A DNA stretch of 64,000 nt from Lineus longissimus (taxonomy: Eukaryota; Nemertea; Pilidiophora; Heteronemertea; Lineidae): assembly GCF_910592395.1 (NCBI RefSeq), contig NC_088322.1, positions 15,123,431-15,187,430 of the forward strand, read 5' to 3'. The position numbers and the translations under genes were made by a program. Shown here piece after piece: positions 17,287-39,401 of this stretch. Below the pieces are notes generated by a model. The model was not told where the DNA came from. It worked only from the letters and a program-made list of their open reading frames with translations, and did not search any database. Numbering within the stretch: the stretch's first letter is position 1; every line of letters starts with the position of its first letter.

Positions 17287-17311
17287 ACATCATAAGAATG
17301 ACCAAGACAAC

Positions 17312-18371: not shown

Positions 18372-19319
18372 TCAATTAATACGAATGTATTTACGAAAGG
18401 CGTCAGAAGACCATCGACCTAGCAGACGTATTTGAGTGTCTGACTTGCCTTGCCGTGCTGCTTCGCTACTCGCACCGATCCTAAATGAATGGCCTTTAAA
18501 CCTACTCGAGTCCAGGCCGCAGAAAGCCAATACAAGTTTCAACATGCGGTCAAAGTCCCTCCTGAGGAGGGGTGCACCGGACGGAGCCAAAAAGAGAGGC
18601 CCTGGAGTAGTCCCCCTAAGTGACAAATAATCTGTTAATGCTGCAATAGGGCAGGGTGCTGAACCTGAAGCGAGGTGTATAAACTGCGGTCCTTGAGTCC
18701 TGCTGGACTTGAACCTCAAAACGGAAATGGTGGCCTAGCCCCGTGCAACGGTGACATCGCCCAGCTGAATACAAGTGGAACTATATAACGGGTTACAGGT
18801 TTTAGGTACCATTTCCCCGATCCTAAGGCATGCATGGAAAGCGGTAGAAAACATGGCGCGCACTAAAAGTTGTTGGTACCTAAGGGGGAATACCCGAGGA
18901 ACTGCAGCGAGCAACCTGACCAGAATAGGTTTTGTTATAGGGAGACGAATGTCGGAACTCCCCTTCAAATTCTGGGCAGCGCCCAGCAGTTTCTTGACTA
19001 GAAAGGATGAAGAAGGGTCTGGATACCCATGCCACTTCATAGTGAAGCAGACGGCCGACAGGTAGCTCGCTATAGTTGCTGGCGCATAATTCTTAGAATA
19101 CAGATAAGCTACAAACAAGGTACAATCAGAGACCGATAATGGCAAAGAACAATCACAGTGTAACACGTATGTACAAAAATTTAGATATATTGTCCAGGCT
19201 CTATTGTAACTTTGCTTTGCTGACTCGCTCAGCACCCCTCCTACCAACACGTTCAAGGAATCAGCAACCCCCTGGGGGATATATCTTCCGGAAGCAGTGA
19301 CGGGTCTTGGTCCAACCAT
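18372..19319 (-). pseudogene. tyrosine recombinase of the retroelement, interrupted by one TAG
   Basis: Two ORFs, 18735-19319 (194 codons) and 18372-18719 (115 codons), lie in the same frame and are separated only by an in-frame TAG at 18735-18737. Together they cover the lambda-integrase fold: the N-terminal SAM-like helical part, the first catalytic Arg in CLRIGE (about 18809-18831), the H-x-x-R pair in HSFRIG (about 18474-18495), the GRW turn and the nucleophile Tyr in RKYIR (about 18382-18399). The stop lies between Arg I and the H-x-x-R box, so the first fragment alone cannot be active. The start overlaps the end of the RT frame by 67 bp in another frame. The enzyme would insert the circular DNA form of the element. 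Confidence 0.8.
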
Positions 19320-21172
19320 GGGGCCAACTGGCGTGCCGCATTGACCTGAAACCGGGAAATCATATCCGGTAAGGTGTTAAGCTTCCCAGGGACGTGCTCG
19401 GCCCTGAAGCGGATATTAAGTTGTAAACAACGCAAAACAAGCTTACGAACCAAACACATAACCCGTTTATCCTTGGACGATTGCTTATTGATAATGTGGA
19501 CAACGGCTTGGTTATCCGAGAGAAACACAATGCATTGGTTCTTCCAAAGGTGGCCCCATACAAACAGAGCGGCTACAATAGGGTAGAATTCTAGAAAGGT
19601 GATGTGAAATGATTTCCACCGTGAGGGCCAAGCTCCAAATAACCAGTGGGAGCCAAAAATCGCCCCAAAACCCAGACTCCCAGCAGAGTCGGTATGTAGT
19701 TTGAGCTTAGTGCTAGAAACCCAGATATCACCATGAAAAAAGGAAACACCGTTGAAATTAGCAAGAAATGCGTTCCAAACAGACAAGTCGGCTTTCGCTT
19801 CAGAATTCAAGCGGATATGATGAAATGGGCGGGAAAACCCGATGGTGAGGTCGATAAGGCGCCGGAGGAAGGCGCGACCAGGCAGGACGACGGAGCAGGC
19901 AAAGTTGAGAAGCCCAATGACCGACTGTAATTCCCGCAGGGTAACCGACGACCTGTTGAGAAGAAATGAGATTTGGGACCGACATTTTGCCAACTTGTCA
20001 GCGGGGAGGCGGGCTTGAAAAATAATTGTATCGAGTTCGATGCCCACAAACGGCATGACCTGCTCTGGGCCGAAAGTTTTGTTAAGAACAAGTGGAATGC
20101 CCACTACCATACATAACTTTTTGAACAGATCTAACTTCTGAGCACATCGAACTCGTCCATGAATAATGAGTAAAAAGTCATCTAAAATATGTACCATAGC
20201 AGAAATACCTAGTTTGTTTACTGCTATCCATTGAACAGCAGTACTCAGGGCTTCAAAGATGGAGCAACTGCTGCCACACCCCATGGGCAACACCTTGTCA
20301 TAATAATATTTGCCCTCCCAGGTAAAACCGAGCAAGTGATAATCGGAAGGGTGAATAGGTATGATACGAAAAGCCGACTTGATGTCGGTTTTTGCAAGGA
20401 AAACTGGATTTGTAAGTGATTTAATTTTGTTAATGGCCTCCCAAATAGAGGCATAATTTACATGTTTGGATTCAAAGGGGATGCCATCATTGACGGAAGA
20501 TCCTTCAGGAAATGAGAGATGGTGAATCATCCTGAACTCCCCCGGAGTCTTTTTAGGGACTACCCCTAAAGGGGAAACATGAAAATTGGGAAAAGGAGGG
20601 TTAGTGAAAGGACCAGCTATTCTCCCTGCCGCTAGCTCTTTTTGAATTTTGGAGGATACAATATCATGATGAATTTTTGAGGAGGTCAAATTATCACAAA
20701 CTAATGAGCCAGGACTACCCTGGTAATTTAACCTAAAACCAACAGAGAAACCGTTCTTAAGATAATTAGTCTTAACAGGGTCATAGCCGTTAAGATAGGA
20801 GCACAGGATCTCACCTTTGACTGGGGAGGGGAGAGGCGTTTTCAAGGAGGGTAGGTGATTATTTTTGGGACTGTTGTTTGGAATCTGAAGGCTTGGCGCT
20901 GTCCTTTTTGAAAGTGGGGGTGTGTCTACACTGGAAGCTGGGGTGAGAACCCTGGCACTTGGTGCAAGTGTGGGGGAAGGCGCATTTGTCGCCTTTGACA
21001 CACTTCCCGTGTTTCTGGAAGCGCCAGCATGACCCTCTGGGGAAGGAGGCAGAGGACTGGCCGGGACGAAAGGACTGAGCATGTGACTTTTTGACGGAAG
21101 ATCCCTTCCTGTCAGAATCTTTATACTCCGGCCGTCCCCGAGAATGTGCCTTGTACAAAAGTACATGGGCAA
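19253..21172 (-). CDS. reverse transcriptase / RNase H of the YR retroelement
   Basis: Open frame of 639 codons. Its first part overlaps gag (20859-21172) in another frame and has no strong start, so translation probably comes from a frameshift or re-initiation. RT motifs are clear: LAKTDIKSAFR with the first catalytic Asp, LPMGCGSSCSIF, and HILDDFLLI in place of YxDD (about 20170-20195), a form usual in DIRS-group enzymes. RNase H follows with HTDSAG, the acidic FLEFYPI, the SDNQAVV box and a final AEHVPG...D. There is no protease or DDE integrase. The frame is intact. It copies the element's RNA into DNA in the host nucleus or cytoplasm. Confidence 0.85.
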   Translation of the reverse strand: MPMYFCTRHILGDGRSIKILTGRDLPSKSHMLSPFVPASPLPPSPEGHAGASRNTGSVSKATNAPSPTLAPSARVLTPASSVDTPPLSKRTAPSLQIPNNSPKNNHLPSLKTPLPSPVKGEILCSYLNGYDPVKTNYLKNGFSVGFRLNYQGSPGSLVCDNLTSSKIHHDIVSSKIQKELAAGRIAGPFTNPPFPNFHVSPLGVVPKKTPGEFRMIHHLSFPEGSSVNDGIPFESKHVNYASIWEAINKIKSLTNPVFLAKTDIKSAFRIIPIHPSDYHLLGFTWEGKYYYDKVLPMGCGSSCSIFEALSTAVQWIAVNKLGISAMVHILDDFLLIIHGRVRCAQKLDLFKKLCMVVGIPLVLNKTFGPEQVMPFVGIELDTIIFQARLPADKLAKCRSQISFLLNRSSVTLRELQSVIGLLNFACSVVLPGRAFLRRLIDLTIGFSRPFHHIRLNSEAKADLSVWNAFLANFNGVSFFHGDIWVSSTKLKLHTDSAGSLGFGAIFGSHWLFGAWPSRWKSFHITFLEFYPIVAALFVWGHLWKNQCIVFLSDNQAVVHIINKQSSKDKRVMCLVRKLVLRCLQLNIRFRAEHVPGKLNTLPDMISRFQVNAARQLAPWLDQDPSLLPEDISPRGLLIP

Positions 21173-22208
21173 TTTCGGACCACTCTAGGGGTTCCTCCTC
21201 CCGCCATCGCCTAAAACTTTCATCGTAAAAACGCCAATCCCCTCCGTCGTCGCAAATTTCTTTAATAAGGGCGGAGTAGCGCATAAGCCTCTGTGCATCT
21301 CCCGGCGTCTTCATACAGTGTACCGACGCGAATATGTCAAAACATGACAACCACTGGAAGATGGACAGAGGCCTATCCTTCCTCTCCCTTCCAATAGATA
21401 GAGTAATAGGCTCCCCGTCGCCATCTGTTGATATAATGGTGGACCTGGGCCTCTGAGGCTTGTCGTATGATGGGGTTTGGAAGTCGTGGAAATCCACATA
21501 CTTCCCCGCCCAAACCCTCTCCTTTACCTTGTCGGGCACACCATAATAGAGAGGCCTAGCAGCCGATATCATAGACCCATTTCGGTCTCTGGCAGAATAC
21601 GACGGCGAGCCTACGGGGTAAACTGCATTAGCCACAGCTGTACCTGTTACCTGCCCCAGAAGGGGCCCGTTAAGGTGAATTGCAGTAGCGTTACAATGTT
21701 CCATGTTTCCAGGTTGTTGCACATGTAGATTCATCGACGGGCTGGCTGCTGTGGGGTCGCCCAAATTGGAAGCCGGCTGTACCGAATGTGACGACTGTAT
21801 TGGGTTGTACGGATGGATAGTTGAGCTGAGTCCATGACCTGGCTGCATCGTAACAACACTCCCGTGGGGTTGCGCCACTGCATTAATGCCCCCTCCAACG
21901 CCGACGTTTGGGCCGTCATTGCGGACGTTATGCTGTCCTGCTATAAGGGTAACCATGGTTGACATCATGGTTTTCATTTCAGCAAACATGTCCGCTACTG
22001 ATGGTACGCTTTGGGTACTGCTAGCATTGTCCGCCAACGAGGGGCCGTCTTGGCTACCAGATGACATGGCGAGGGCATCGCTGGAGCCAGCGGCTGCTGG
22101 TATGTTTCTTCTCCTCCTAGCAGGCCTGGGCGCCTGGTTTCCTGTTGCAGGCATAGGGGCCGCCCGTTTCTTGCCCTTGGCTCTGGTGCCTTGCGGTTGC
22201 GCCGCCAT
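20859..22208 (-). CDS. gag-like nucleic-acid-binding protein of the YR retroelement
   Basis: The frame is open from 22304, but the ATG at 22208 (MAAQPQG) is preferred, since a pyrimidine-rich stretch ending in CAG lies just upstream and looks like a splice acceptor. The product has 449 residues with a basic, Pro/Ala-rich N-terminus, a long Ser/His/Gln-rich middle, a compact helical part and two zinc motifs near the end: a CCCH finger (C-x7-C-x5-C-x3-H) and a knuckle-like C-x2-C-x3-H-x4-C. It should coat the element's RNA. The last 314 bp overlap the RT frame. No break was found. Confidence 0.7.
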   Translation of the reverse strand: MAAQPQGTRAKGKKRAAPMPATGNQAPRPARRRRNIPAAAGSSDALAMSSGSQDGPSLADNASSTQSVPSVADMFAEMKTMMSTMVTLIAGQHNVRNDGPNVGVGGGINAVAQPHGSVVTMQPGHGLSSTIHPYNPIQSSHSVQPASNLGDPTAASPSMNLHVQQPGNMEHCNATAIHLNGPLLGQVTGTAVANAVYPVGSPSYSARDRNGSMISAARPLYYGVPDKVKERVWAGKYVDFHDFQTPSYDKPQRPRSTIISTDGDGEPITLSIGRERKDRPLSIFQWLSCFDIFASVHCMKTPGDAQRLMRYSALIKEICDDGGDWRFYDESFRRWREEEPLEWSEIAHVLLYKAHSRGRPEYKDSDRKGSSVKKSHAQSFRPGQSSASFPRGSCWRFQKHGKCVKGDKCAFPHTCTKCQGSHPSFQCRHTPTFKKDSAKPSDSKQQSQK

Positions 22209-22813
22209 ACCTGAAACGAGGGAGCGGAATCCAGAACCTTGCATAAAATAGAGGTGAAAACTCTTTGATGTGACATACATGTAGGTATGCAAAACAAAGA
22301 GCATAAATGCCTGAGAAGGCCAATAGGACCCAGGCTAAAGTATAATGTAAGATGTCCATGGTGACAAAGAGCCACAAGAACGAAAAACACCGCATGTTAC
22401 AGCCGTGCAACAGAAAGTTAGCTCAGGGTGTTCAGGGGCAGGATATGCCAAGAACACAAGAGCGCAATAAAAGATTATTGCTCCGGGTGTCCAGGGGCAA
22501 AATATGCCAAGAACACAAGAGCGCAAAATTTGTATTGATTAATCCGACAGTGCATCCAAGGACCGAAGAAGCCAAGGATGTTACCATAAAAGGGATTAAT
22601 AAATTGTTGGCTCAGGGTGTCCAGGGGCTCCAAAGAACTAAGGTAAGGAACTAAGGTAATTTGAGACGAGGCAAGGGAAAATTAAACCATGCCAAGTGAG
22701 GGGGGGTGCCTGAGGCGCCCTCTAATGTACAATAGATTGAGCAAAACCAGAGTAGCTCATGAGACGCATACCCCAAAAGGCTACGCAGCTGTAACTGGCC
22801 TACATGTATATTC
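22209..22813. other. non-coding stretch between the SGNH and gag genes
   Basis: About 600 bp between the two element genes. It contains the 59 bp tandem repeats and, at the left edge, the acceptor-like sequence before the gag ATG. The ORFs that run through it on both strands are short and repeat-derived. Confidence 0.5.
22421..22632. repeat. 59 bp tandem repeat inside the retroelement
   Basis: Two close copies start at 22421 and 22480 (GCTCAGGGTGTTCAGGGGCA type, each followed by ATATGCCAAGAACACAAGAGCGCAA). A partial third copy starts at 22610. They lie between the SGNH and gag frames; the role is unknown. Confidence 0.75.
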
Positions 22814-23509
22814 CTAGCCGCGGGCTCCTACGGCACAAGATCTGACAGCACCGCGAATGCTCCTGTAGAGTTTAAGATGACCCAGGTCATTGAGGTGGGT
22901 CCCGTCATGATGATGGACATGCTGTGTCGACCGTGATAGACCCTTGTGGCGCCAGAAGATGACCGGCACTGTACCATTGGGGTTACAGAAATTACGGACG
23001 TATCCATTGGTCTGATGTATCCTGGCGTTGTAATCAGACACTGAAAGATGTCTGGTACGGGTCCTTAGTCGTTGGATGAGTTGGCCGACAAAAACCTTAG
23101 ATAAGCCAGGTAATTCCCTGACATATTCATCAACCAACTCGGACACAGCATATGCCACATGCATGGGCTGAGCACCCCAACCCATCTCATCCAAGTCATT
23201 AGATCCAATCTGTAGGAACAGAATGTTAGGCTGGAAAGCTCGTAAATTGCGCCATACAGCCTGATTCTTGGACAGAGATGAGACGGTGCCCCCACTGATG
23301 TGATGCCAACGGATGGCACAGTCATCCAGATCAAACAAGTTGGGCCGAGGTTGGGCTGGGTGCACATCAACAAAAGCCTCTTTTGACGCGAAATCGCGTG
23401 AAAATTCCATCAAACGCCTCACGTAGCTATGTCCCACTACAGATACGCGAGTCTGAGGTCTTCGTTGGTAGTTACCAACGCCGGCAGCATGCACAAGATG
23501 GGCCGCCAT
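22814..23509 (-). CDS. SGNH/GDSL-type hydrolase carried by the YR retroelement
   Basis: The frame is open from 23677, but only from a TTG; the first good ATG is at 23509 (MAAHLV), giving 231 residues. Block I is VVGHSYVRR with the nucleophile Ser (about 23421-23437), block III is LQIGSNDL with the oxyanion Asn (about 23195-23211), and block V is DGTHLNDLGH with the Asp-x-x-His pair (about 22892-22910). All catalytic residues are present. Similar hydrolases are known from some Ngaro-type YR elements and from ORF1 of CR1-type LINEs; substrate and role in the element's life are unknown. It lies upstream of gag, and a CAG acceptor-like stretch precedes the ATG. The frame is intact while the recombinase is broken. 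Confidence 0.8.
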   Translation of the reverse strand: MAAHLVHAAGVGNYQRRPQTRVSVVGHSYVRRLMEFSRDFASKEAFVDVHPAQPRPNLFDLDDCAIRWHHISGGTVSSLSKNQAVWRNLRAFQPNILFLQIGSNDLDEMGWGAQPMHVAYAVSELVDEYVRELPGLSKVFVGQLIQRLRTRTRHLSVSDYNARIHQTNGYVRNFCNPNGTVPVIFWRHKGLSRSTQHVHHHDGTHLNDLGHLKLYRSIRGAVRSCAVGARG

Positions 23510-25288
23510 AGCGCCAACTGAAGACAAAGGAAAAGTATGTGAGGGGATGGAATGCACTGCAAATGTACACGGAATACCGAGCAGTGGAAAAAGTCGGTAG
23601 AAAAAAGTCGATAATAGGCACTTAAGCAGGTGACACGTCCACCCTAAGTGGCTGTACCTGAAATGTACCCCTAACAAGATCGACAGAATATATAAATATT
23701 ATACTACCGAGTGAAACGATTCCAGAAATTAGCGAAAAATCACAGAAGTTGTCTTGCTAATCTGAAGCAAGTTCCTGGAATGGCGGGTTCGCGCGAGATT
23801 CATCCGCGTGGGTAAATAGGCCGGGGAAAGACGGCCCCCTGATTGGCTGAAAGATCCCGCCGATTCCCAGAATCTGCACCGCTGCCCCTGATGATAACAT
23901 GCAGAGTCAGCACAGTTATAAATAGAAATTAGTCACTCTTGCTTCAATCATAAAATCAATTATGCCTGGACTGGTTCGTCCGCATAATGGGCCTTTATGG
24001 AGTCGGCCGTTTATACTTTCGGTTCTGAAATAGAACTTGGTGTAAAAAAGTTCGTAATCCATTAAAGCTGTGGGGAGAAATGTACACTCATGTTGTTGTG
24101 GTTAGCACTGTCTAGTTGAAGCCTTTATTTTCAGCACTTCCTCTCAGCTGAAAACTAGACTTTGGATGCCTTCACTTGCGAGTAACACACGAGAGTGTTT
24201 CGTGGGGACTTTTCAGAAACTCCAGAAACGACTTTTACATGTATATGGCATCAAATGACGATTTAGCAGCATAAAAAGTATCTTGTGCTAGCGCTGTATA
24301 TAGCTAGAAGGGACAGGTAAATTAGTATGGGCCAAGGCATGGTCATCTTTTCTGTTGTCGTTCTATGGCGTACTTGGTGAAGTCAACAAGCATGCTGCTT
24401 TGCCACGAGCGCCGAAGTTATGCAGTGCAGTGCATGGTTGTCTATGTATCCAGGTTATGGTCAGCATTCGAATTCGGCCAGACGTAATCATGCATGTTCG
24501 GATTCAAGCATAATAACTGGATCAACGAAAACCTTTGATTTAGGGAACTGCAGTATCTTTATTGTGGATTCCTTTCACTTCTCTATGACGATATTCCCAT
24601 CATGAAATTTATCACGGGCTATCATAGAATCGATGATGGGAGATCCGATGGACAACATGGTTTGTTTTAATCATCATAGATTTTTCTTACGCAATCATAA
24701 AGTTTTGGACGGATACTCTCCCTGTGGAATAGTGCAGACCCGTTTTAAATTTCCCGGCAGCAGTGATAGAGGTACGTCACGTCACATTCGTCGCCATTTT
24801 GTATGAGCACGAAGAAGGTTGGGTGCCAACATTTTCTACTTCCTTAAGCGCTGTTAACTGCTGGTAAGTGAATTTGATTAGTTTGATTGGGGAGGGCATA
24901 GGTTATCAAAGGGTGGAGAGCAAAGAGAGTCAGTTTCGGGTACCGCGAGCTTTTTAGCCGAGGGCGGTCTCTTCATACAGAAGAGCTTTATAAATCGCAT
25001 TCTATTCCAACAGTCCGATTTTCGTCATTGCCTTTTTGTTGTACTTTTTTGTGATGGATGTGAGGGGTTTACAGGTTTATGACCATCCATTAAATATCTG
25101 ATTTGTGTTTTGAACCATTGCACCACATCGTTTCGCCACTTTTGACGGTCTCTTGCACACTTTGTATCAAAAAAATAAATATACCACTTTCATTTACATG
25201 TATATTCAAAACCTATGTATGCATGCTGTACATACTTACAATTTTTCAAAACCAGGTCATGCCATCCTGTGTGTAGAAAAGCTTCTAT

Positions 25289-25724
25289 GAGACAAGACCA
25301 CTGATGAATATTCATTAGGTTGGAGGGTCGAGGCCTATCAATTAGACGAGTGCATGTTTTTAACTCTCAAGTGCATATATGGAGAGGTATTGAAAAAATA
25401 TTTGTTGTGCCAAGTCCACAGATATAAAGAAATTATTTGATGAAAAAATTAATTTCGAATTTTGCTTATTGGGTAATAGGGGGCGTGTTTTGAGGTTTTT
25501 CTGCCAGTTGGCTGAAAAGAGTGGAAATATCAAAGTCTGTCTAATTTGTCGATTATCAAAAAATTTCCGTGGTCAACTACCAGTTTATTTTTCACCATTT
25601 ACTGTCCGGAATAACATAATCTAAATTTCAGATTCACAACCCCACGCAGTATTTGATGCGTCGCGGTCAAACACTGACAATTTAACTGCTAAAAGGCTTT
25701 ACAAATCAATTGTGGTCTTGTCTC
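25289..25724. mobile_element. 436 bp MITE with 13 bp terminal inverted repeats
   Basis: The ends are GAGACAAGACCAC and its exact reverse complement GTGGTCTTGTCTC, flanked on both sides by CTAT (25285-25288 and 25725-25728). Copy B has a single CTAT and no insert at the equal place (about 50790). This shows a DNA transposon insertion in copy A. There is no transposase ORF. It sits in the first intron of the PB1-like gene. The superfamily is not determined. Confidence 0.8.
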
Positions 25725-25999
25725 CTATTCATCATTTCTACTCACGATCGTGTTGATAAGCTTGCGTGAACAGTCAAATCACACAAAAGCTGCTGTTAGC
25801 ATTCTCTCAAACGGGTCATATCGCATTTTAAAACCCTTTTTTTATTGAAAACGTCTATTTTTAGTGTCTTGTCACGTGACTGCATTTTCAGCTCGATTTC
25901 GATGTAAATTCAAATGACGCTGCCATTATCTGTAAATGCGCATGTGCGGTGGACACATCAAAGAGAAGTCGTGGTGGCCAGCTGGCAGTATCGATGTAG

Positions 26000-26040
26000 T
26001 GTGCGTGTGTGTGTGTGGGGGGGGGGGGGGGGGGGAGGGG
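26000..26040. repeat. GT run followed by a long G run
   Basis: About ten GT dinucleotides, with one GC variant, are followed by an unbroken G run of about 21 bases. Copy B has only a short GT run and no long G run here. Such runs are error-prone in sequencing, so the length may be inexact. Confidence 0.85.
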
Positions 26041-26137
26041 GTCGTCAGGACGACCAAACAGAATGGATTGTTGACAATAGCATTTTCATAATGGTCGCTT
26101 ACTGTGCACAATGTTTTCTACTACAGGCGATAATTTA

Positions 26138-28458
26138 ATGGCGTCGCTTAACCCCACACTTGATGTTGTCTACGAAGGACGCAGAAAGAAACAGTTATTG
26201 AAGAGCAAGAGATTTGTAGCCTTCAAAGATGATATCAAGAGGAGTTTCGGAATCATAGGACAATTTCATTTAGTTGCCTACGAGAAAAATGGCGGAGAAT
26301 ATGACATCCAAGACGACGATGATGTTGCAACATTGCTGACAGGTGCCTTCAGCCTGCTGAGGATAGAAGCTTATCCAGGGGTGAGTAAAGGGTATACTGT
26401 AAACCGCCAAATTTGCGGTTTACAGGGATGATAAGTAACATTTAGTCAGTAATTGAGGACAAATAGATCTGAATTGTTTAGAAAGACATGTCGTACAACC
26501 TGGAAACGTTCTTAAGTTTCCCAATCCAGGATGCAGAAGTTAAGTAGGCGTGGTTTTGAAACAAAGTTGAAATAGTGCAGGTTGGAATCGGTGGATTGGT
26601 TGGGCCACGCGTTCTCGTGGCGTATAATTTGGATGTCCGTTGATGTTTGTGAGAAATTGACAGTGCTCTTTTCGCATAACAAATGTGGCTAATGGACATA
26701 AGTTGGGACTGCATTGGCGTGATTGTTGGACTGTCCTACATGTAATGCATGTAATTAAGTCCGGTATGTAATTAAGTTTTGAACAATTATTCATTGTTCG
26801 ATCGCTTTTGCAGGGACCCTGCACCATTTGGCTTGGAAGAGAGGAGCACTCCATCACTCGGGTTCCTGCAGCCAACACCCACCTAATGCGTCTAGCAAGG
26901 GAAGTAGTTTTACCAGACTTCAAAAAGACCGAGTTTGTTGAGAATCTCCGCAAACTTTTAAATTCCATCAAGTTGGCGAAGTACCGGCTATATGTTACTA
27001 ATACCGGACTTTCGACTGATCTAAGCAACATGGTAAGTGATGACTTGAAACCAGCATTAGGCCGTTGTAGAGAAACATTCCGAACTGTGGTTGAAAAGAA
27101 CAGAATCGTATTGGATAAGATTACTGTAGTGATCACCCACCTGCGTGATGGGCTTGAAGAGTTTGTGGAACCCCATCTGAGGGAGATCGCCACCCATGCT
27201 GCTATGATGGAAGAGGAGTCTGGAGAAAGGGTGAAAGAACTGGAAAATGTGGAGGGAAAGGTGCGTGAGATACTGAGAAGGGTCCAGGAAGTAATCGGTG
27301 ATGGCGAGGAGATTGTCCGCTATCTCGAAGAGACCGTATGCGCCATCAGGAAGGTGCAGTCTGTCATGTCTGACATGAAAAGCTTCTGGTCAAATGTCAA
27401 GGCAGCCATCGGCAGTCTCAGCAGCAGCACGTTTTTGGCTGATATAAAGGAATCGGTAGGACCTGCAGAAGGACAAACTGATGAGGAAACCCACAAGAGG
27501 TCTGCTCGCCACATGTGGAGAACGAAGGCCTTTAAGCTCACTGGGATAGCCTTCATTTCGAAGTAGGTACATGTTATAGCATTGGCGCGGTACGTGTTAG
27601 CATAAGCGCGAACATTGGCCTCTATAACCAGGAATCGATCCCGGGAAGCGATTTGCAGAATTGGGTAGCATGCAGTGGTCGTTTTGACTAACATTGCGAC
27701 GAAAGTGCTCGTTATTCTAGTATAAGCTACCTTCGTAGATGCATACCACTTGTAACATCACATGTAATAGCATCGTGAAATCTGCTAATACCCTGTCCGG
27801 GTGTTCATTTAAGAGTCTTTTCAGCGTCGTATTTATGAGCCAACTGTTGAGAATCGTACACGAAATTGGTAATTAAGTGATTCCTGTTGAGATTCTTATA
27901 AGAGTATCTCGCTTGGATTTCCGTTAAAATTATTTTAAGATAACAGGTTTTATGCCTGTTAAGATTCTTAACTGACTGTTATTCCTTTATGATTCCTGTG
28001 CCTGCGATTTTTGCTTGGATTTTCATTGAGATTCTAGTTTGGTTTCCCGTTATGATTTTTCTGCAATTTTTTTCAGGCATGCAGCGATCCGCGACATATG
28101 CTTTGACTGCCAAGAACCCATGAGAACATTTCAAGGATACCTGGCGGAGTTTCTGGAAGAGTTTATTTCAGATAGGGGAGTCGCTCAGCAGAAATACCAA
28201 GATACGATAAGGGAAGTGGAAAATCCGGCGAGGGAGGAACATGTCGACATAGAGCAAGAACCGGGTGATGATATAGATGATGAAACAATTGCTGAAGTTC
28301 GGGAGGTATTGGGCCTGCCTTATGACAACACGGTGATGCGAATGACCCGAGCCAGGCATGAAAGCGGTTATGCTGACCTCCGCTTCTCAAGCGAAGCAGA
28401 GCCTGAAGAAAATAAGAATGCACTCGACGAAAGTTTTGCCTCTTGGACACTACAATAA
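26138..28458 (+). CDS. fast-evolving PB1-like / helical protein, copy A
   Basis: Three coding exons join in phase: 26138-26380 (donor GTGAGT, phase 0), 26814-27562 (acceptor TTTTGCAG, donor GTAGGT, phase 2) and 28077-28458 (acceptor TTTTTTTCAG). The product has 457 residues. Residues 8-79 look like a PB1/ubiquitin-like fold: a first strand LDVVYEG, a basic helix near FKDDIKRSFG, and the acidic EYDIQDDDD at 54-62 like an OPCA motif. Residues 82-330 are mostly helical with coiled-coil stretches (about 185-265). Residues 332-457 are acidic and probably flexible. An ATG at 26111 is also in frame but would lie before the likely acceptor. There are no signal peptide or membrane segments, so it is likely cytosolic. 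Exons 1 and 3 of the coding part differ strongly from copy B. Family and function are unknown. Confidence 0.7.
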
Positions 28459-29868
28459 ATCGAGTAATTCTATGCGTTATTGACACTCAATTCACTCCAT
28501 TTGATATTCGATTTTTACACTGGCAGGTGTTTCTCCATCCAATGGGGTACTTTTGTCTCACTTGTTGAATTGTGGGAAGATGCGTGGTGATATGGATGTG
28601 TGTTAATCCTTATATATCCAAGTTATTTTTATGTAATCTACTTTATACGTGTGTGCGTGATACGATAATACATTGTTACACTAGATATACCTATTGTCTT
28701 TGTGTCCTTTGTTTTATATTAATCCAATCGTCCATCGATTATGCAGCATGTGTCTCTAAGGTACACCACAGAAGTGTGGTCTCGGGGAAGTCACTTATCT
28801 TCCCTTGATTGTTCAGGGAGCGGCGGGGGGTCCATTGGGACACATTCTAATGCAGTTCTGGTTCCAGCGTGACGTCCTCTCCATTTTAACGGCCCGAGAT
28901 ACGTTGAACCGGCAACTAGCCGATCAACACCCCGATAGACTCGGTTGCCCCCCTCCCCCCGTAGTGTAAACCTAGAGACATATTGTGGTCCTTCCTGGGA
29001 CATCATGTCTAAGTCTAGGTTGCCACAATAACATTATCATCGCTAATTCACAACCAGAAGGCAGTTTGACCATTTCCACGAAGAAATACCCCTATTGAAA
29101 TATACCCCTCCCCCGATTGATCTATCAGTGGCCATTGCCAACTGAAGGGGACAATACGAGGGCACAATCAGCGCGTTACGACGGAGACTCATTTTGTCGC
29201 AGCCATCCCCGTCTTAGTTCAATTGACTTAGCATAGATGGCTTCACAATCGTTTTCCCGCCGCCCTGCTTTCGGTGTGACGATTTATGTTTATCCCAATA
29301 TTTCAGTGTGTCCACAATAGTCAGCTGGAGAGACCATGGCGTTTTGAGGGGAAAACATAGCAAAATGGGCCAGTTGGTCTTTCAGCTTTCCAAGACAAAG
29401 AATGAGGGGATCTTTCAGAAGCGGGAAACACTCTGAAACGTTCCACCCGTGTTGCAGGAGAATCTGTCCCAGGATGGAGAGTCCCTGTGACACCTTTGTA
29501 CAAACACAAGGATCTGTATCTTTGTCGTGTTTGTTTGGCTTTGCTAGGAGCCCATCCTGGTACCATGGGGACATCTTAGAAGACTGAACGCCAAGATACA
29601 CTTATAAACGCCAAGTAAGCGTCCCTTCACTAAATTGTGTTAAACTAGCCGAACTCGGCTATACTTCATGTCAGGATTAGAATCGGAGAAGTACAAATGA
29701 ATGAGGGGAGATAGGCTCGTATTTTGGGGTACTTCAGGCCAACCCTGGCCTCTGTTACTCGCCCATTTCTCGCACCCGAAGTGTTAACATTCTCTGATCA
29801 GCCAAGATTCCTGTCGAACTCCCGGGGTGGGTCTAAAACACGGCATACACCATCCAGGTTATAGCTGA
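28459..29868. other. 3' flank of the PB1-like gene up to the duplication junction
   Basis: Mostly non-coding. A minus-strand ORF at 29290-29601 (103 codons) looks protein-like in composition, but in copy B one G-to-A change makes an in-frame stop, and no splice sites were seen, so it is not called. The last 900 bp differ from copy B at only about three positions, far fewer than elsewhere. Confidence 0.5.
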
Positions 29869-29952
29869 ACGAAGAAAAAGAAAAAGGCAGCGAATTCAAT
29901 GGTTACTGGTGTGACAAGTGCTGGAATGAGCCAATCAGAAGCGACTATTTAA
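29869..29952 (+). pseudogene. 3' fragment of the divergent GPCR at the start of copy B
   Basis: This piece repeats the last 27 or so codons and the stop of the GPCR at 3360-4520 (Lys-rich tail onwards) but has no receptor body upstream. The sequence before it belongs to the end of copy A. It is a truncated relic made by the duplication (or by an assembly join) and cannot encode a receptor. Confidence 0.85.
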
Positions 29953-30546
29953 CCACGTGACTTGTCTAACATTGGCACGTCGAGATAGGTGTGTGCTGAA
30001 CTTAGCGACAGCCACATCGAGATTCAAATATGAATTGACGATATAACCTGATACATTAACTGAAAATACCTCTTATGTTTTTCTGATGTAACTACAGGTG
30101 TTCTGTCCAACGTCGCGTCTTATAAAATCTAAAGGCAGATTAGTTCATAATTCATGATCAAACATCGAAATTTATTTTACCATTTTATTGCTATATTATC
30201 TTAAAGTCAATAAGCTATGTTTTCGGTTGGGGCGAAAACCTTAAGGAAGGTCCTACAGATCGGGCACAATTTCGTTTTGTGCTTGCGCTATCGATGTCCA
30301 AGACATCAGGCTATCTACGAAAGAGATGGTCTCTGACTATGCGTTGTATTCGCTTACCTCTAAATGTAGCTTAGGTTTTGATTCATAAAATATTAATTCA
30401 AATTTATAAATTGCGAAGGTAGTTTGGATCACGTGCCTACTACCATCTCTAAAGTATAGTTTAGCCTACTCAGATACTTTTAGCTTAGCTTTTGACAAAA
30501 TAACTTTACAATACATCGCCAAGCTTTAAACGTATCTTAGAAAACT
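29953..30546. other. 3' flank of the GPCR fragment, copy B
   Basis: Close copy of 4521-5114. Non-coding, nothing further seen. Confidence 0.5.
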
Positions 30547-30807
30547 CTACGGAATCGTCAATCGAATACCTAAAATTTTTGAAATAGTATTTGAATAAAG
30601 TGCTGTTTTTGGCAATACGACACTCATTTGTTCATTGGTCATCTTAAAGTATTGTAGGGGTGTCGGAGCCCCTCTTGTTTCTTTTCCTATGTCTGTATAC
30701 AGTTTCTGGAAAGCTGGAGAGTCACGGAAAGCTGGAGAGTCACGGAAAGCTGGAGAGTCACGGAAAGCATGGGAATTTGAAATTTTTGATTGACTAAAGG
30801 ATGCCAT
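30547..30807 (-). CDS. 86-codon ORF with a six-residue repeat (copy B)
   Basis: Same predicted protein as at 5115-5375, including the three Phe-Arg-Asp-Ser-Pro-Ala units from the 18 bp repeat at 30708-30761. The only difference inside the ORF is one silent base. Coding status is equally uncertain. Confidence 0.25.
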   Translation of the reverse strand: MASFSQSKISNSHAFRDSPAFRDSPAFRDSPAFQKLYTDIGKETRGAPTPLQYFKMTNEQMSVVLPKTALYSNTISKILGIRLTIP

Positions 30808-31423
30808 CGCTCTTTTTGATTGTTTTTTTACTGTAGTTTTTGTCTACGTGTAAGGAATAAGGCTTCATTCCATGAATTCACAATGCACTCATCAAATTAA
30901 AGAGGATGCAATGTCAATGAGTACATACACATAACATTTAAAAGTATAATCAGTCTCGAACTCCACAACCAAGTGCGAAAGAGCAAATAGTTCACAGGGT
31001 TGTATTTGTGGCAGTTAACGCCCCCTCGGTGTCGTCGAGAAAATTTGTTTATGACCAAAAAGCGTTAATACGATCCTGGTGGTGATTTACATTTCCGAAA
31101 TTTCTGTCCGTCCGGCTTTTTGCGGTTAGATTAGACTATACCGCCTTTGAAGCTCTGTACGCGACTGTTTCCTTGAATTATGTCCGCAAATATTGTTCAA
31201 GTGCCACCTTCAGATTGGCACGTCGTGCAATCTGTTTTCGCAGATGTGATGCTAATGAAGTGGCCGACGTATACACACGCGATTGTCAGCTTTGCAATTC
31301 ATTCATGGCCACGTCATCTTAAACCAGACATAGTCCTGCTTACCCTTATGAGGTAAATTTATGAGCAAAATTTTAAACTTTCCTTTCTTCCCTGGCTTTA
31401 CTTGAGCATGTAGTCCCGAGCCA

Positions 31424-31753
31424 TCAGATGCTCGGCTCCGGCAACTTTCGGTACGAAATAGCGTCACTTCCTTTCCCACCTCCACCTCCGCCCACGTGGT
31501 GCTCGGGAGGATTTGCGCAGTGAGTAACGGAAACAGAGACGTTCATACACTCCATCGCCGCGCTCGAATCCGATTCGAACTTCATTTCCACCTTCGAAAT
31601 CTGCGAGTGGAAACTTGATCTCAACTCCGAAGGATCTCTGATGGAAGACATAGCTGTGTCGTGTATGAATGTTGTTTTTGTTGATACGAGGTGCTCCCTG
31701 CTGTCGCCGAAGGGGGAATTGGTTACGTCGATGAAGGAACAAATTGCACCCAT
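31424..31753 (-). CDS. small protein with N-myristoylation-type start (copy B)
   Basis: Same 109-residue protein as at 5992-6321, without a single amino-acid change. The donor of the untranslated first exon (31909/31908) and the acceptor at 31759/31758 are also kept. The three base differences (the codons of Val in VTNSP, Ile in SQISK and Arg in YRKLP) are all silent, whereas the overlapping antisense and other-frame ORFs do change. This pattern is expected under purifying selection. Two alternative frames here are shadows. Confidence 0.55.
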   Translation of the reverse strand: MGAICSFIDVTNSPFGDSREHLVSTKTTFIHDTAMSSIRDPSELRSSFHSQISKVEMKFESDSSAAMECMNVSVSVTHCANPPEHHVGGGGGGKGSDAISYRKLPEPSI

Positions 31754-32344
31754 TGAGTCTGAATAGAGAAAGAACATATCTAAAATTCCCTATGAATAAC
31801 TTAAGTCTGGCATGTGGTGGTCAGTGCTAGCCCTCGACCCCCTTATAACAAAAAGAACACAACAGAAAAAACTGTGTTTGTTTCACCCAAGGTGCAAATG
31901 CAACTTACCTGTTGCTAAAGACACTCGTTTTCAAAGCAGAAAACTTGAATTAAGAGCCCTTTCTAGCCTGTGTCCTATCACGCAATGAGAGAAAATATCG
32001 TCGCAGAGGTGGTGGCGTAGTTGGTGCGGTAACCTTGGTAACAAACGAACTGGGAAAAAAATCCGTTCCGTCACTTTCGCAGGAGGTGTTGATCTTCGTA
32101 TGCTAATAACCTAGATACCTGCTGCGCGTGTATATCAGTGATTGTCGAAACAAAATGTTCGAAAGCTCATATGGACGAAATCGTGCTCCAGATGGCGGTA
32201 AATATCAAAATACTTATATCGAACTCGGTCTACGTTACCACACTTGCGCGACGCGCTGCGGGAAAATATTTGTAGGCGTCGTCTTCTTTGTCAGGATCCT
32301 TATATTCCCCCATCCTTTGTAACAGTCAATTTTGAATGCTTAGC

Positions 32345-32625
32345 GCTAGTCCTATTGTAAAGTGTCAGTTTGCATGCTGACATGAAATCTTATTCTAAGG
32401 TGTAGTCAATTTTGCTTGCTGACCACAAATCTTATATTAAGGTGCAGTCACTTTGCATGCTGATCGCATATCTTATTCTAAAGTGCAGTAACATTTGCAT
32501 GCTGACCCCAAATTCTATTCTCAGAGATAATTTGTATGCTGACCTCAAGTTATTTGCATCCTTATCACTTATGCTATCATGAAGCAGCCAAATCTGAATG
32601 CTGATCACAAATCGTTTAAGAAAGT
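32345..32625. repeat. degenerate ~45-50 bp tandem array (copy B)
   Basis: Counterpart of 6925-7165 with one additional unit (around 32397-32440). The extra unit either arose in B or was lost in A by slippage or unequal pairing. Confidence 0.6.
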
Positions 32626-32815
32626 TGTCGATGTCATAACAGGTTGTTTTCAACTTATCGTTCTATTTTGAAACTGATGTTGAGCCGCTATATTTAGAGT
32701 TAATCCTTATATAGTGTTCCTAAAGCAGAGAAAACACACTTTAAACCACATTACGGGTTGGTTCAGCTATTCCGTTGATGCCATACTGGAACAGCTATAC
32801 CTAGATTTGTGAAAA

Positions 32816-32842
32816 CTAGACCTGAAGCCTCGCTGCGCGAGG
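32816..32842 (-). terminator. Helitron 3' end: hairpin plus CTAG
   Basis: The palindrome CCTCGC-TGC-GCGAGG (32828-32842) forms a 6 bp stem with a 3 base loop, and its inner edge is 12 bases from the CTAG end. This is the usual 3' stop signal of rolling-circle transposition. The next host base is T on the minus strand, as expected. Confidence 0.85.
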
Positions 32843-32906
32843 TATTTTGAGGATGGTACACGCTATGATGTAATGATTCTCATGTGTATTTACGGGTTTG
32901 GGGTAG

Positions 32907-35900
32907 TTATAATAGTTCATGGTAAACAATGTTTTTTGTGTAAGGAGCGTCGTCTGCTTCGATGAGCACTTTGACATCAGCTGCTCTCTTTCCTCTGGAG
33001 AAGGCTGTGTAGAGTTGACCATGTGCAAAGACAGGGTTGGGAAGGTAGATTCCTACGCGGTCATTTTCCTGGCCTTGGCCCTTGTTGATTGTCACTGCCC
33101 ATGATAGTCTAATGGGGAACTGTCGTCTGACGATAGTGAAAGGGAAGTCATCGCCTGATCTGTCATGGTGTGGAATTCTTGGTAAGAAAACTCTGAGGCC
33201 GTTATTAATGCCAGTTGACACTTGACACTCGATGGTTCTTTGCATCATCTTGATGACAGTCATCCTGGTTCCATTCCTGAGACTGCAGCTTGGTCCACCT
33301 TGTAGATTTCTGAGCAGCATGACAGGGCAGCCAACTTTGAGTTTGAGTTCATGGTCAGGTAGTCCTGAGGGTGTCAAGCTGTTGAGGTATTCGGTAGGAA
33401 TGGCTTCTTTATGCTGATCTTCGTGAATGGAGTCAGCCGAGAGGTATGTAGTTGTTACTCCTGGGAACTTTGCAAGACATTGGTCATTGAGGTGATGTAC
33501 ATTTTTGTTCAGTGGAGTGTAGATTGTACCTGCTGTAAGGTTTTGAGCATTGCCACATCCATGGTCGAGGTCAGGGAAGATTGCATCAATGAGTTCTTGT
33601 GTTGTGTCAAGTAGATGTTTTTCTGGTATTTGTATCATGTTGTCTCCAATGCTTTCGTGTAATTCCTCTTGTCCGTCTCCGAGTCGGAGTAGGTATTCGG
33701 AGAAGTCCACTTCTTGAGCATCTGTTCTCATGTTGACCGTTAACTTGTGCTTTGTCATGATGTGATACAGGGGACTAAACTGGATGCACGCGCGAACAAT
33801 CTGTGGTCTTCCGGCTTTCTTTACGACAGGAGGGGTTTGTCGGGGGTCACCACCTAATAGTACAACGATGCCTCCCCATGGATCCTGACATTGCATTATG
33901 TCCCTTAGTGTCCTTTCAACGCACTCGATGTTGTATCTGTGAACACTGAAGATTTCATCCCAAATTATCAAGCTGGTGTTCTTGATGAGGCTGGCTAGAG
34001 CTGATTGTGCTTTGATATTACAGGTGGAATCCTCCATTATAGGTATTGGTATTTTGAACCTGCTGTGTGCAGTTCTTCCTCCAATGAGGTTTTGGGCAGC
34101 AAGGCCAGTGCTGGCAACGTTGAGGACAATGAGCCCCTCAGGTCTTATTTTGGCAGCGATGAGTTTCATGGTGAAAGTTTTGCCGTATCCTCCTGGTGAA
34201 TTCAGGACAAATTGTTTTGTTATGTTGTCTTCGGGTTGAGAATGGACTGCGAGTTGTATTAGGTTGAAAAGTTCTGCCTGTTTCTCATTTATGGAGGGGT
34301 AATCCTTGTGGAATATGCTTGCCTGTTCATATTTGTCGTAGATTTCGTCTTTAAGGAGCATTGCAACTTTCTCTTCCTCTGTCAAGGGATTGGGTTGGGG
34401 CATTCCGTCGATATTAGCGAGGCTTCCGCCCATCAGAGACAATTCTTCATTCAAGGACGTTAGTAACCTGTCGTGTATAGTTTGGGCGTTGACTTTATCA
34501 CGCGTACAGTTACGAAGTTGCATCTCTTGATATACGATATCTTCCGACATGTCTGTGAAGAACTTGTCATACAGTGTCTTGGGTACTGTGGGACTGCAGT
34601 ATTGAAGAATGACAGCAAAGGTGGCACGGATTTGTTTCCCTGTTCCGTATTGCGATACTTCCATCAAGGCAACAGTCCACTCACTGTCATCCTCAAGAAG
34701 GCCCATGGCTAAGGCTGTTTCCTTGAAGGTGTTGTATTCGTGTTCTTGGTAATTGCGAAGGTCATCATACGAAGTGGGGCCTTTGATGTGGCCGAGGAGT
34801 AACTTCAGATAGAATCGTTCACCTTGGATAGGACATACATTATTGATTCTTCCGATTGACCTTGGAACTTCTCCGGATGCCAATGGAGTGGCTCTCTTCT
34901 TCCAGGTATGGTTAGGTTGCCACGTGTAATGCTCAGGAATGTCTGCGTATAGATATTCTCTGGCATCCGGATCATTCTGGTTCAATTTGAAGAAGGCCAT
35001 GAGTGTAGTGTCTTTCATGGTGTCCAATGCTTCTTCAGCCATGTCTTCTTTGAAGATGACGTTTTGCTGATCTTGCAAGTGTATGGCGAGGGACTGAACT
35101 GCTGGATACCTGTCTTGGATACTGTATTCCATGGTCCTCCAGTGGGCATCATATGCATCAATACTTCTGGCATTGATGAATTGAGCTATCTCATCTTTGT
35201 CTTGTACTTGTTGTCCTTGGATGCCGACAGTGGCAACATCTGAACCCTTGTGAACATACTTGTAGATGTACTTGATTGTGTGGAATGAGCCGACGTATTC
35301 AACGTTAATGTGAGCCACCATCTTTAGGAGTAAGTACTTATTGTGGGGAACAACCCAGCGGTTGTCGTATGTGAAGTTGTTCTTTTGAATAGTTCGGCCA
35401 TTATCTGGTCTTTTGTAGATAGGATATCCGTGACCGTCAGCAGGAAGCGTTGTTTCATCATTGAAGTTCTTTGGGTATCCAAATCTACATTTGCCATCGA
35501 TCATACAGGGGGCATTTGGAAAGGCGGGACCACATGGTCCATGAAGCATGAAGTTGGTGACGATTTCATACAGCTTAGGTTCGTTGTGTAGGTCCGGGAT
35601 TTGGGCCTGGATGATGTTGTCGATGTCATCTACTGTGATTGTCTCTTGCAGGAGCAGAAGGATATGGGCATGCTTCATTCCTCTGAATTGTCCTTCGATA
35701 ACATGGAGTCTCGCTTTGACAGTACCAAGGACACCGTGTTTGAAATCAGCAATGAGCTCGTTGAGACTGTGCTGAAAGATTCGGTTGACGATATCTGGTC
35801 TGTCGGAAGGTTGCTGCCCAGGGAAGAGATTGTTTGTGACAGCAGTCCATCGGGGGTTGGCGGTGAAAGTGATGAACAGGTCAAACTTCCGGAATTTTCT

Positions 35901-38900
35901 GGCTATGGCGAGGGCATCTAGATAGTGTTTGTACATGTACCGTGGACTTCCCGTGAAGGATGATGGAAGGACTGTGAGCTGTCCCAGTCTTTGCAGTTCA
36001 GTTTGCTCAGTGTTGTTTCTGGCTTGGCTGAGAGCATCAGCTAGACCTCTGTACTGTTCCACTCGGAGGCTGTCCTGGTTATACTTGATGTACTGTAAAC
36101 GTTCTTTTTCTATTTTCTGCCACTGGTCACAAAGGTACTCCTGTGCAAGTCTCTTGGCTTTGTGGAGAGTATTGAAGCTGCCGTCCCTGACCTGGAGATG
36201 GAAACGGAAGAACTGAAGGGCTGTTAGCTTCTTGCCATTGGATTTTGTGAGGTTGCATTCGAAGCTGAAGCCACTTTCACCATGAGGCATTATGAGAGGG
36301 TAGGAGGTTGGGTCGTACATAGGATGTTGTTCATTAATGTGGATGGTGTCATTCTGTTTTGGATGGCAGCTGCTGTCTCGGTAAATGACGACATCTCTTG
36401 GTTCAGTGTGCTCGCCTGGTGCCAGGAAGACGATATCTGGTACATCAGGGTTGTGGTGCTTTCTAGTGGCTCCGATAGATCCTTTAGCTTTGAAAACCAT
36501 CCTAAGGTCTTTGTGTGGGTTTTCTTGAAAGACTTTGGCAGCATTCTTGTAAATGTGGACATAAGGATTGACAGAGGAGAGTTCTGATTGGATGACAGTT
36601 AGAATTGTCTTATCAATGGACCCAGCACCCTTGGAAATGTTCATTCGGGTGTTAGTTTCATGTTCCTGGTCATACACGAATATTTGTGAGAACTTTGGGG
36701 TTTGTCCGGACAAAGGGAAGAGATTGGGTGTGAGATGGTACATCTGGCCACTGATTTTAAAGGTTTGGGGGCCACGGCCACGTCCGTGGTAGTCCTCAAC
36801 TTTTCCTGTGAAGTTTTTTGATGACATGGAGACCAAGTTATTATACTGTCGTATGTTCTGCAGGAAATTTGGGGAATTAAACAATGTCTGAAGAGCAGGT
36901 GTTGGATTTGCGAAGGGTTTGAGTTTTATTGTTCCATAGTCACAACACTTTGAAAACACTTTCATTGGTCTGTTATCGAGGATTATGATTTTGCTAGATT
37001 CCCAGGGGAACATGAGAGCCTTGCAGTTGGCACATTGCTCAGTCATGTTGGGAATACTATCAATGAAAGATGTGGCAGTAGTTTTCTCTTCTGGCGGAGT
37101 CCAGGCCATCTTGTATTTTGGAGCGAGTTGTCTCTTTCTTGTTGATTGCTGGTACTTCTTTCGTTGGACAGCATAATCTGGTGTGAGTTTTTTTAGTTTT
37201 GCTGCAGCTAATGCTTTTGGCGTTCTGATTCTTTCTGCATCCCTCTCCTTCCTAATGGTCAACGCTTGCTGACGATGGTGTTGTAGTAACCGGAGTTCGT
37301 CAGGATCAGGCTCCAGAGTGCACATGACACCTATGGGTTGACTGTGACCCATGTATGGACGGCCACACTTGGAGCATCGCAATATCCTGTAAATGGAAGA
37401 GGGGTAAGTTGAGATGATTGCCAGAAGTTTGTCCGAAATCTCTTGGAAAAGATAGTGGTGACACACAGCATAATGGGTCCACGTCCAAAATAACTGGACG
37501 TCCTGAAATTTAAACTGGACGTTTCAACCTAATGACTGTCTTACCTTTTGGCATCTTGTTGTTGGTGTTTGATCGTTTCAGCTGTTGCCTCTGAATCGTG
37601 GTCAAGTGTGGACAGTGTGGCCTTAGGAGGAGGGCACTGTTCTGAAAATATGAAGAGGCATTGATATGCAGATGACTATTTATAGAAAATTCCGATGATT
37701 CAGCATTTGATTGAAAATTTACATGATTCAGCATATTCAGGATGCTTACCGATGTGATTAATTGCAAGTTTGTTGCGTTTGGCTGTGGTTAGTGCATCAG
37801 GAAGTCTGTTTCGTTTTCGTCTATGGGCTTCTGGCGTTCTCTGTCTTTCTGCATCCCTCTTCTTCCTGAGCTCCTTCCTAACAGCCAATGCTTGCTGACG
37901 ATGGTGTTGTAGCAAGTGGAGTTGTTCAGGATCAGGCTCCAGAGTACACATAACACCTCTGGGTAGACTGTGACCCATGTATGGACGGCCGCACTTGGAG
38001 CATCGCAATATCCTGTAAATGGAAAAGGTTATAAAGAAAAGGTTATAAAGATTAGTGAAGATAAAAGTTTGAGAGTGCGCACCCGGACCTTCGGACTTGG
38101 ATAACTTTCTAAATCGAATGACCTTTACTAAATTACCTTTTGGGATGTTCCTGGGGTTGGTGTTTGATCATTTCAGCTGGAGCCTCTGCGACTGTGGTGG
38201 ACAGTGTGGCCTTAGTAGTAGTAGTAGTAATAGGCGGCGGCGGCGGCGACGGGCTAAGGGACTGTTCTGAAAATGAGGCAATAGATATGCATTTATATGA
38301 TCTGAAAATGACACTACTGATATGCACGTCGGAAAAAATTGGAACGTCCATTAAAATGGGGACCATCTACAAATTTAGGAACCATCTACAAACTTTAGAG
38401 ACCATCTACAAATTTAGGGACCGTCTACAAATTTAGGGACCGTCTACAAATTTAGAGATCGTCTACAAATTTAGGGACCGTCTACAAATTTAGGGACCGT
38501 CTACAAATTTAGGGACCGTCTACAAATTTAGGGACCGTCTACAAATTTAGGGACAGTCTACAAATTTAGGGACCGTCTTCAAATTTAGGGACCGTCTACA
38601 AATTTAGGGACCGTCTACAAATTTAGGGACCGTCTACAAATTTAGGGACCGTCTACAAATTTAGGGACCGTCTACAAATTTGGGGACCGTCTACAAATTT
38701 AGGGACCGTCTACAAATTTAGGGACCGTCTTCAAATTTAGGGACCGTCTACAAATTTAGGGACCGTCTACAAATTTAGGGACCGTCTACAAATTTAAGGG
38801 ACCATCTACAATTTAGAGACCATCTGCAAATTTAGGGACCATCTACAAATTGGAACATCCATTAAAATATAGACTATCCGCAAATTTAGGGACATATCAA

Positions 38901-39288: not shown

Positions 39289-39401
39289 AGTCTTGCATAA
39301 ATGTCCATTGTCTTCAGAAAATCATCATCAGGAAATTCAGAAATCAATTAAAATAGGTGCTACATTGTGCAAGTACCATAGCAGTTTGGGTTTAGTTCCA
39401 A

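What the first reader, a model, noticed from the sequence alone, without database searches (positions are those of the whole stretch)
26138..28458. A gene whose two copies differ only by protein-changing substitutions
Base-by-base reading of 26138-28458 against 51154-53433 finds about 42 substitutions in coding exons: 15 in the first coding exon (243 bp), 5 in the middle one (749 bp) and about 22 in the last (381 bp). Every one changes an amino acid or the stop codon; none is silent. There is also an exact in-frame 27 bp deletion. The introns differ at only roughly 1.5-2 per cent, against about 6 per cent in the first and last coding exons. GPCRs in the same duplication show a normal mixture (for example about nine changing and four silent in GPCR 4). 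With about a quarter of random changes expected to be silent, zero of 42 is very unlikely by chance. The first exon looks like a PB1-type interaction domain and many changes swap charge there. This fits strong diversifying selection, as in immune, allorecognition or reproductive conflict genes. It may be a rapidly evolving recognition system not yet described.
Basis: partly seen in the sequence, partly recalled or inferred. Interest (0 to 1): 0.92.

Follow-up and report, generated by a model that had tools for sequence, protein, structure and literature searches.

The report
Twin ribbon-worm genes diverging under selection
A bootlace worm carries two side-by-side copies of an unknown gene whose single-letter coding differences all change the protein and none is silent, the mark of strong natural selection for difference, most likely at the ends of the protein that touch other molecules.

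Summary
Confirmed, with corrections. The window is from the bootlace worm Lineus longissimus; the second copy equals the public protein LOC135499693, "uncharacterized". It lies in a real tandem duplication (about 25 kb, 5-bp microhomology, no Ns). The copies differ by 41 amino-acid-changing substitutions, 1 stop-codon change, a 27-bp frame-keeping deletion and 0 silent changes. With the local mutation spectrum 10.5 silent changes were expected; P(0 of 41)=5.6e-6. Four duplicated GPCR pairs show 24 changing, 20 silent. Three segments (codons 49-81, 340-388, 439-456) hold 32 of the 41; the 258-codon core holds 5. Diversifying selection is well supported. Not supported: a PB1 domain (no significant Pfam or PDB sequence match; fold prediction unavailable) and an excess of charge changes (16 of 39; 39% expected). 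Upstream DNA is itself 10.6% diverged, so exon 1 alone is weaker than exon 3. No relative was found in three word-based protein searches. Best reading: an intracellular, probably self-assembling coiled-coil protein with a conserved core and fast-evolving ends, in molecular conflict; escape from cross-assembly is the main rival. The selection pattern is a known kind; I found no described family.

The parts
4433..29868 (.). tandem duplication, copy A
   Evidence: BLASTN self-comparison; GCTGA at its start, at the A/B junction and at the end of copy B
29864..55011 (.). tandem duplication, copy B
   Evidence: no Ns in the window
26138..26380 (+). copy A coding exon 1 (residues 1-81): 15 changing, 0 silent; 12 of 15 in codons 49-81
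26814..27562 (+). copy A coding exon 2: mostly helical-looking core, 5 changing, 0 silent
28077..28458 (+). copy A coding exon 3: 21 changing, 0 silent, plus stop-codon change; holds the 27 bp missing from copy B
51154..51396 (+). copy B coding exon 1
   Evidence: spliced product identical to public protein P0001
51830..52578 (+). copy B coding exon 2
53070..53433 (+). copy B coding exon 3 (ends 3 residues later than A in aligned terms)
26381..26813 (+). copy A intron 1 (7 of 433 sites differ; first substitution 110 bp after exon 1)
27563..28076 (+). copy A intron 2 (6 of 490 aligned sites differ, 3 gaps)
25765..26137 (+). upstream region of copy A, unusually diverged from copy B (36 of 341 sites, 4 gaps)
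7560..16065 (.). control genes: four intronless rhodopsin-type GPCR frames of copy A (partners at 39907-48268)

Best explanation
A real tandem duplication (25 kb) in the bootlace worm produced two copies of an undescribed gene, and since the split (or since the two founding alleles split) natural selection has repeatedly fixed amino-acid changes towards both ends of the protein while leaving the core alone. Shown by sequence: two intact copies, zero silent changes, three hot segments, a cold core. Inferred: the protein stays inside the cell, its middle (about residues 82-339, with a heptad-like period near 201-280) builds an assembly, and the variable ends are contact surfaces for a fast-changing partner, most likely a component of a parasite, virus or selfish element, so that the pair widens recognition as duplicated host restriction and recognition genes do. 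The selection part I hold at about 0.85; the conflict mechanism, given selection, at about 0.5.
For: 0 silent of 41 with 10.5 expected; omega=1 rejected, p=1.3e-6 overall and p=6e-6 for exons 1+3; with the neutral rate fixed to the introns, omega is 6.1 for exons 1+3 and 0.6 for exon 2. GPCR pairs in the same duplication 24:20, p=1.4e-7. Exon 3 is a sharp peak: last intron-2 substitution 43 bp before it, first 3' substitution 79 bp after A's stop codon. Hot segments 12.1, 8.8 and 13.0% of sites against 0.6% in codons 82-339; 5 of 41 changes fall in 58% of the codons, P=2e-9, a split chosen after looking. Both copies keep open frames and the deletion keeps the frame. Ends change, core does not: the pattern of a conserved scaffold with variable contact surfaces (inference). 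No membrane-grade or signal-like hydrophobic stretch (max 19-residue hydropathy 0.96). No relatives in three protein searches, as fast-evolving conflict genes often show (recalled), though those searches see only relatives that share exact words and the phylum is thinly sampled.
Against: One gene pair from one assembly; no outgroup, no alleles, no expression data. Silent changes fall short of the intron rate only moderately (4.1 expected, P=0.016; Fisher p=0.047). The excess of changing differences depends on the yardstick: against the 10.6% upstream stretch there is none (36 seen, 49 expected), though silent changes are then missing far more strongly (P=1.7e-6). Exon 1 alone is weak (Fisher p=0.046) and lies beside that diverged stretch. 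The densest 40-codon stretch is only mildly unusual (P=0.011). Nothing links the gene to immunity or any pathogen. Charge changes are not enriched.
Confidence: 0.45

Rival explanations
1. Escape from paralogue interference: the ancestral protein assembled with itself, the duplicates first formed mixed complexes, and selection changed the contact ends so that each copy assembles or signals only with itself. Function may be ordinary; the burst of changes is insulation.
For: Changes are concentrated towards the ends, core kept; heptad-like period suggests self-assembly; net charge of each third is nearly unchanged between copies (0/0, +1/+1, -19/-18), as if the function was kept and only matching changed. 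Escape of duplicated complex members is in print (PMC12626893, passages seen; PMC6711710, start of abstract in listing).
Against: 36 changes in exons 1 and 3 is many for insulation alone (judgement); balanced charge can also arise by chance (not tested); no assembly was shown.
Confidence: 0.25
2. Captured alleles: unequal exchange between two haplotypes locked two old, balanced alleles in tandem. The differences then are allelic and predate the duplication, as expected of a recognition or incompatibility locus.
For: Divergence is patchy: upstream 10.6%, exon 1 6.2%, exon 3 6.2%, rest of the duplication 2.2%, as an old allelic core would leave.
Against: Exon 3 is isolated between introns and 3' DNA of 1-3%; the microhomology junction also fits a within-chromosome event. 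Not separable here.
Confidence: 0.15
3. Mutation hot spot or conversion from an outside paralogue, without selection.
For: The upstream neighbour of exon 1 is diverged; other 250-bp patches reach 4-8%.
Against: Such processes do not read codons: 0 of 41 silent, 6-15 silent in wrong frames. No third copy in the window by tblastn; the rest of the genome could not be searched.
Confidence: 0.05
4. Assembly or sequencing artefact, or a false duplication of two haplotypes.
For: Similar neighbouring blocks (97% in the GPCR part) are a common artefact (recalled); the genome report says 5 haplotypic duplications were removed in curation (PMC8593623, part 1 of 2 of the text read).
Against: Each copy has its own transposon insertion, copy B starts inside the tail of a GPCR frame whose body is not repeated, the junctions share GCTGA and there are no Ns; HiFi long reads, contig N50 10 Mb. 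Errors would not avoid silent sites.
Confidence: 0.04

Closest known systems
NPIP (morpheus) genes of the ape LCR16a duplicon
   Same: Gene of unknown function in recent segmental duplications of about 20 kb with a large excess of amino-acid changes (PMC11838601, passages). That its exons are more diverged than its introns is recalled.
   Different: Many copies in primates; here two tandem copies in a ribbon worm; no sequence relation found, none tested directly.
Snake venom gene families (phospholipase A2 and others)
   Same: Duplicated genes with changing substitutions above silent ones and above introns; in some, change confined to exon segments (PMC2711939, passages). Ka/Ks above 1 among venom gene copies of the habu (PMC6062510, passages).
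   Different: Those are secreted (recalled); this protein shows no signal-peptide-like stretch and no Pfam family at its cut-off.
Nemertean toxin families under positive selection
   Same: Same phylum; duplicated toxin families with positively selected sites (PMC10674772, passages).
   Different: No Pfam family match at the curated cut-off; not compared sequence by sequence with those toxins.
PB1-domain scaffold proteins
   Same: Residues 1-88 read like the strand-helix-strand order and acidic hairpin of PB1 domains (recalled pattern).
   Different: No Pfam PB1 hit and no significant PDB sequence match; fold not tested.

Membership tests
Duplicated genes under diversifying selection (dN above dS, introns conserved) | Changing rate above silent rate in coding sequence | tested here: met
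   41 changing, 0 silent; LRT p=1.3e-6
Duplicated genes under diversifying selection (dN above dS, introns conserved) | Coding exons more diverged than introns | tested here: met
   Exons 1 and 3 6.2% each, introns 1.4%; exon 2 at 0.7% does not share this
Duplicated genes under diversifying selection (dN above dS, introns conserved) | Recurrent change at the same sites across several lineages | not testable with these tools
   Only two copies at hand; own-genome search not answered in 16 tries
PB1 domain (PF00564) | Match to the family profile | tested here: not met
   No PB1 hit for copy A whole at E up to 1 or residues 1-98 of both copies at E up to 10 (one weak hit there, NucS_N, E 0.16)
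PB1 domain (PF00564) | Ubiquitin-like beta-grasp fold | not testable with these tools
   Structure prediction busy in 10 tries, then switched off
Secreted venom toxin | N-terminal signal peptide | tested here: not met
   Best 9-residue mean hydropathy near the N-terminus 0.66 (A) and 0.74 (B); hydropathy only, no trained predictor
Transmembrane allorecognition receptor (such as Hydractinia Alr, recalled) | Membrane span | tested here: not met
   Best 19-residue mean hydropathy 0.96 in A, 0.88 in B; hydropathy only
Diversity-generating retroelement or adenine-directed mutation (recalled) | Changes limited to one base type | tested here: not met
   11 of 12 substitution directions seen, 19 transitions and 23 transversions (incl. 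one artefact)

The most novel reading that the evidence does not exclude
The gene founds an undescribed class of intracellular recognition proteins in ribbon worms: a conserved coiled-coil scaffold whose two ends form one composite, hypervariable recognition surface, kept diverse by conflict and multiplied by tandem duplication or by locking balanced alleles together.
Probability: 0.2. Interest if true: 0.85.

Novelty: new member of a known kind. Interest (0 to 1): 0.6.

Why it matters
This pair carries its own controls (introns and four GPCR pairs in the same duplication), so the selection signal does not depend on a distant outgroup. It names exact residues to test and an orphan protein whose partner, once found, would show what a ribbon worm cell is racing against. 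If the rival is right, it is a clean natural case of two fresh paralogues becoming insulated from each other. That sequence-only entry points to conflict genes are scarce in ribbon worms is my judgement, not a search result.

Tried and rejected
PB1 membership: Pfam and PDB sequence searches gave nothing significant (weak hits only, such as NucS_N E 0.16, Cas11c E 0.37, a myosin-A fragment E 0.75); kept as a lead only. Charge-swap enrichment: rejected, 16 of 39 against 0.39 expected, p=0.87. Third copy at 63536-63613: weak tblastn hit, read in three forward frames and found spurious. Viral or prokaryotic origin: 49 and 165 stretches matched a pattern but none encoded a relative (two short peptide patterns each, so only close relatives would show); PHROGs gave two weak hits, best E 0.026. 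Overlapping frame as a reason for silent-site constraint: all five other frames of the aligned coding sequence hold 9 to 32 stops. Lower gap penalties do not lower the upstream divergence (36 of 341 at three settings). Weak Pfam hits to the helical middle (UTP20_C, Med8 and others, all below cut-off) read as coiled-coil noise.

Papers: ten searches on the species genome, nemertean positive selection, the morpheus family, PB1 with positive selection, venom introns (one search found 0, one search found 7), nemertean allorecognition, tandem copies without silent changes, paralogue interference, and the locus name LOC135499693 (0 papers). No title or abstract start that I saw in the listings mentions this gene; apart from the passages and sections cited, the listed papers were not opened.

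Full report
What it is. The window comes from the bootlace worm Lineus longissimus, or a genome identical to it here: the second gene copy, spliced from the window, equals the public protein P0001, "uncharacterized protein LOC135499693 [Lineus longissimus]", over all 451 residues. Whether copy A is annotated I cannot tell: the P0001 cluster has 2 member sequences on 1 contig.

The duplication is real. Copy A of the block runs 4433-29868 and copy B 29864-55011. The start of A, the A/B junction and the end of B share GCTGA, and the left end lies inside the tail of a GPCR frame (3360-4520) whose body is not repeated. Copy A alone carries a 6.7 kb insertion with reverse transcriptase and GDSL hydrolase frames, copy B alone a 6.9 kb insertion with a Helitron-like frame. 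There are no Ns. The genome report describes HiFi long reads, Hifiasm assembly and a contig N50 of 10 Mb (PMC8593623, part 1 of 2 of the text). A false duplication of haplotypes is therefore unlikely.

The count. Point differences in coding sequence: 41 change an amino acid (15, 5 and 21 in exons 1, 2 and 3), one changes A's stop codon, none is silent; a 27-bp deletion in B relative to A keeps the frame and itself makes one new codon. I first counted 42 changing because the aligner set that gap so that codon 398 looked substituted. Rows dropped before the final count: gapped codons, the stop codon and codon 398. Nei-Gojobori sites: 294 silent, 1047 changing. Using the spectrum of the 326 substitutions in the rest of the duplication, a quarter of random changes would be silent: 10.5 expected, P(0 of 41)=5.6e-6; exon 1 P=0.012, exon 2 P=0.22, exon 3 P=0.0025. 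Fisher tests of silent against changing rates: all 6e-5, exon 1 0.046, exon 2 0.59, exon 3 0.010. A codon model rejects omega=1 with p=1.3e-6 overall; exon 2 alone p=0.097. The wrong five frames give 6 to 15 silent (computed with the artefact codon). Four GPCR pairs in the same block: 8, 5, 4 and 3 silent, 11, 2, 9 and 2 changing; total 20 and 24, omega 0.37; difference from this gene p=1.4e-7. The finding was picked as an oddity by a reader, so these probabilities flatter it; a factor of five for the gene pairs here does not change the verdict.

Yardsticks that help and that hurt. Introns differ at 13 of 923 sites, 1.4%; GPCR silent sites 2.0%; the rest of the block 326 of 14765, 2.2%. Against these, 36 changing differences in exons 1+3 are far too many (6.5 to 10.3 expected). 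But the block is patchy: some 250-bp stretches elsewhere reach 4-8%, and the 373 bp before exon 1 differ at 36 of 341 sites, 10.6%. Against a 4.4% rate the excess shrinks to 36 seen for 20.3 expected (P=0.001), and against the upstream stretch there is none, while the lack of silent changes becomes extreme (13.3 expected in exons 1+3). So the contrast changing/silent stands on any yardstick tried; the claim that exon 1 is faster than neutral DNA does not. Exon 3 is the firmer case: no substitution in the 42 bp before it and one in the 100 bp after A's stop.

Where the changes lie. Codons 1-48: 3; 49-81: 12; 82-339: 5; 340-388: 13; 399-438: 1; 439-456: 7. Within exon 1 the bias to the second part has Fisher p=0.002 (the split was chosen after looking). 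A 40-codon scan gives only P=0.011 for the densest stretch, and 5 of 41 in the 258-codon core has P=2e-9, again chosen after looking.

The protein. Copy A matches no Pfam family at its cut-off; no significant PDB relative by sequence; no relative but P0001 in three searches of a 5.8-billion-protein set, the first capped at 8000 scored candidates, the others scoring 94 and 121, all limited to proteins sharing exact words; none in viral contigs, prokaryote genomes or PHROGs at the sensitivity used. Nemertea are thinly sampled, so orphan here means not found in these searches. No stretch hydrophobic enough for a membrane span or signal peptide; a strong 3.5-residue period in residues 201-280 suggests a coiled coil.

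How it most likely works. Shown: two intact copies, selection for protein change towards the ends, constraint or neutrality in the core. Inferred: intracellular assembly through the core, contact with a changing partner through the ends. I favour an arms-race partner over insulation of the two paralogues because 36 changes are many for insulation alone, but the balanced charges and likely self-assembly keep the second reading alive. Alleles captured by unequal exchange would explain the patchy divergence and are compatible with either.

Compared with the known. Recent duplicates with a large excess of amino-acid changes are known from ape NPIP genes and snake venom genes, in the latter with introns more alike than exons (PMC11838601, PMC2711939, PMC6062510; passages), and nemertean toxins show positive selection (PMC10674772; passages). 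This is a new member of that kind of evolution, in a gene for which I found no described family, and probably not a secreted toxin.

Noticed in passing
32816-39696: Copy-B-only insertion with an open 1481-aa Helitron-like frame (Helitron_like_N, PIF1) at 32907-37352 on the minus strand; empty site in copy A at 7353-7355.
   Followed up: partly
17287-23992: Copy-A-only insertion with reverse transcriptase and GDSL hydrolase frames and a frame with a sub-threshold CCCH finger, resembling Ngaro/DIRS-type elements (name recalled); 7-bp overlap at the empty site in copy B 49475-49481.
   Followed up: partly
38277-38941: 19-bp tandem repeat array inside the Helitron-bearing insertion.
   Followed up: no
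3360-4520 and 7560-16065: Cluster of intronless rhodopsin-type GPCR frames; GPCR1 and GPCR3 pairs show 11:8 and 9:4 changing to silent, GPCR2 and GPCR4 2:5 and 2:3.
   Followed up: partly
25289-25764 and 24743-26137: About 475 bp upstream of copy A has no counterpart in copy B (about 20 bp there), and the neighbouring stretches are unusually diverged: possible promoter divergence between the copies.
   Followed up: no
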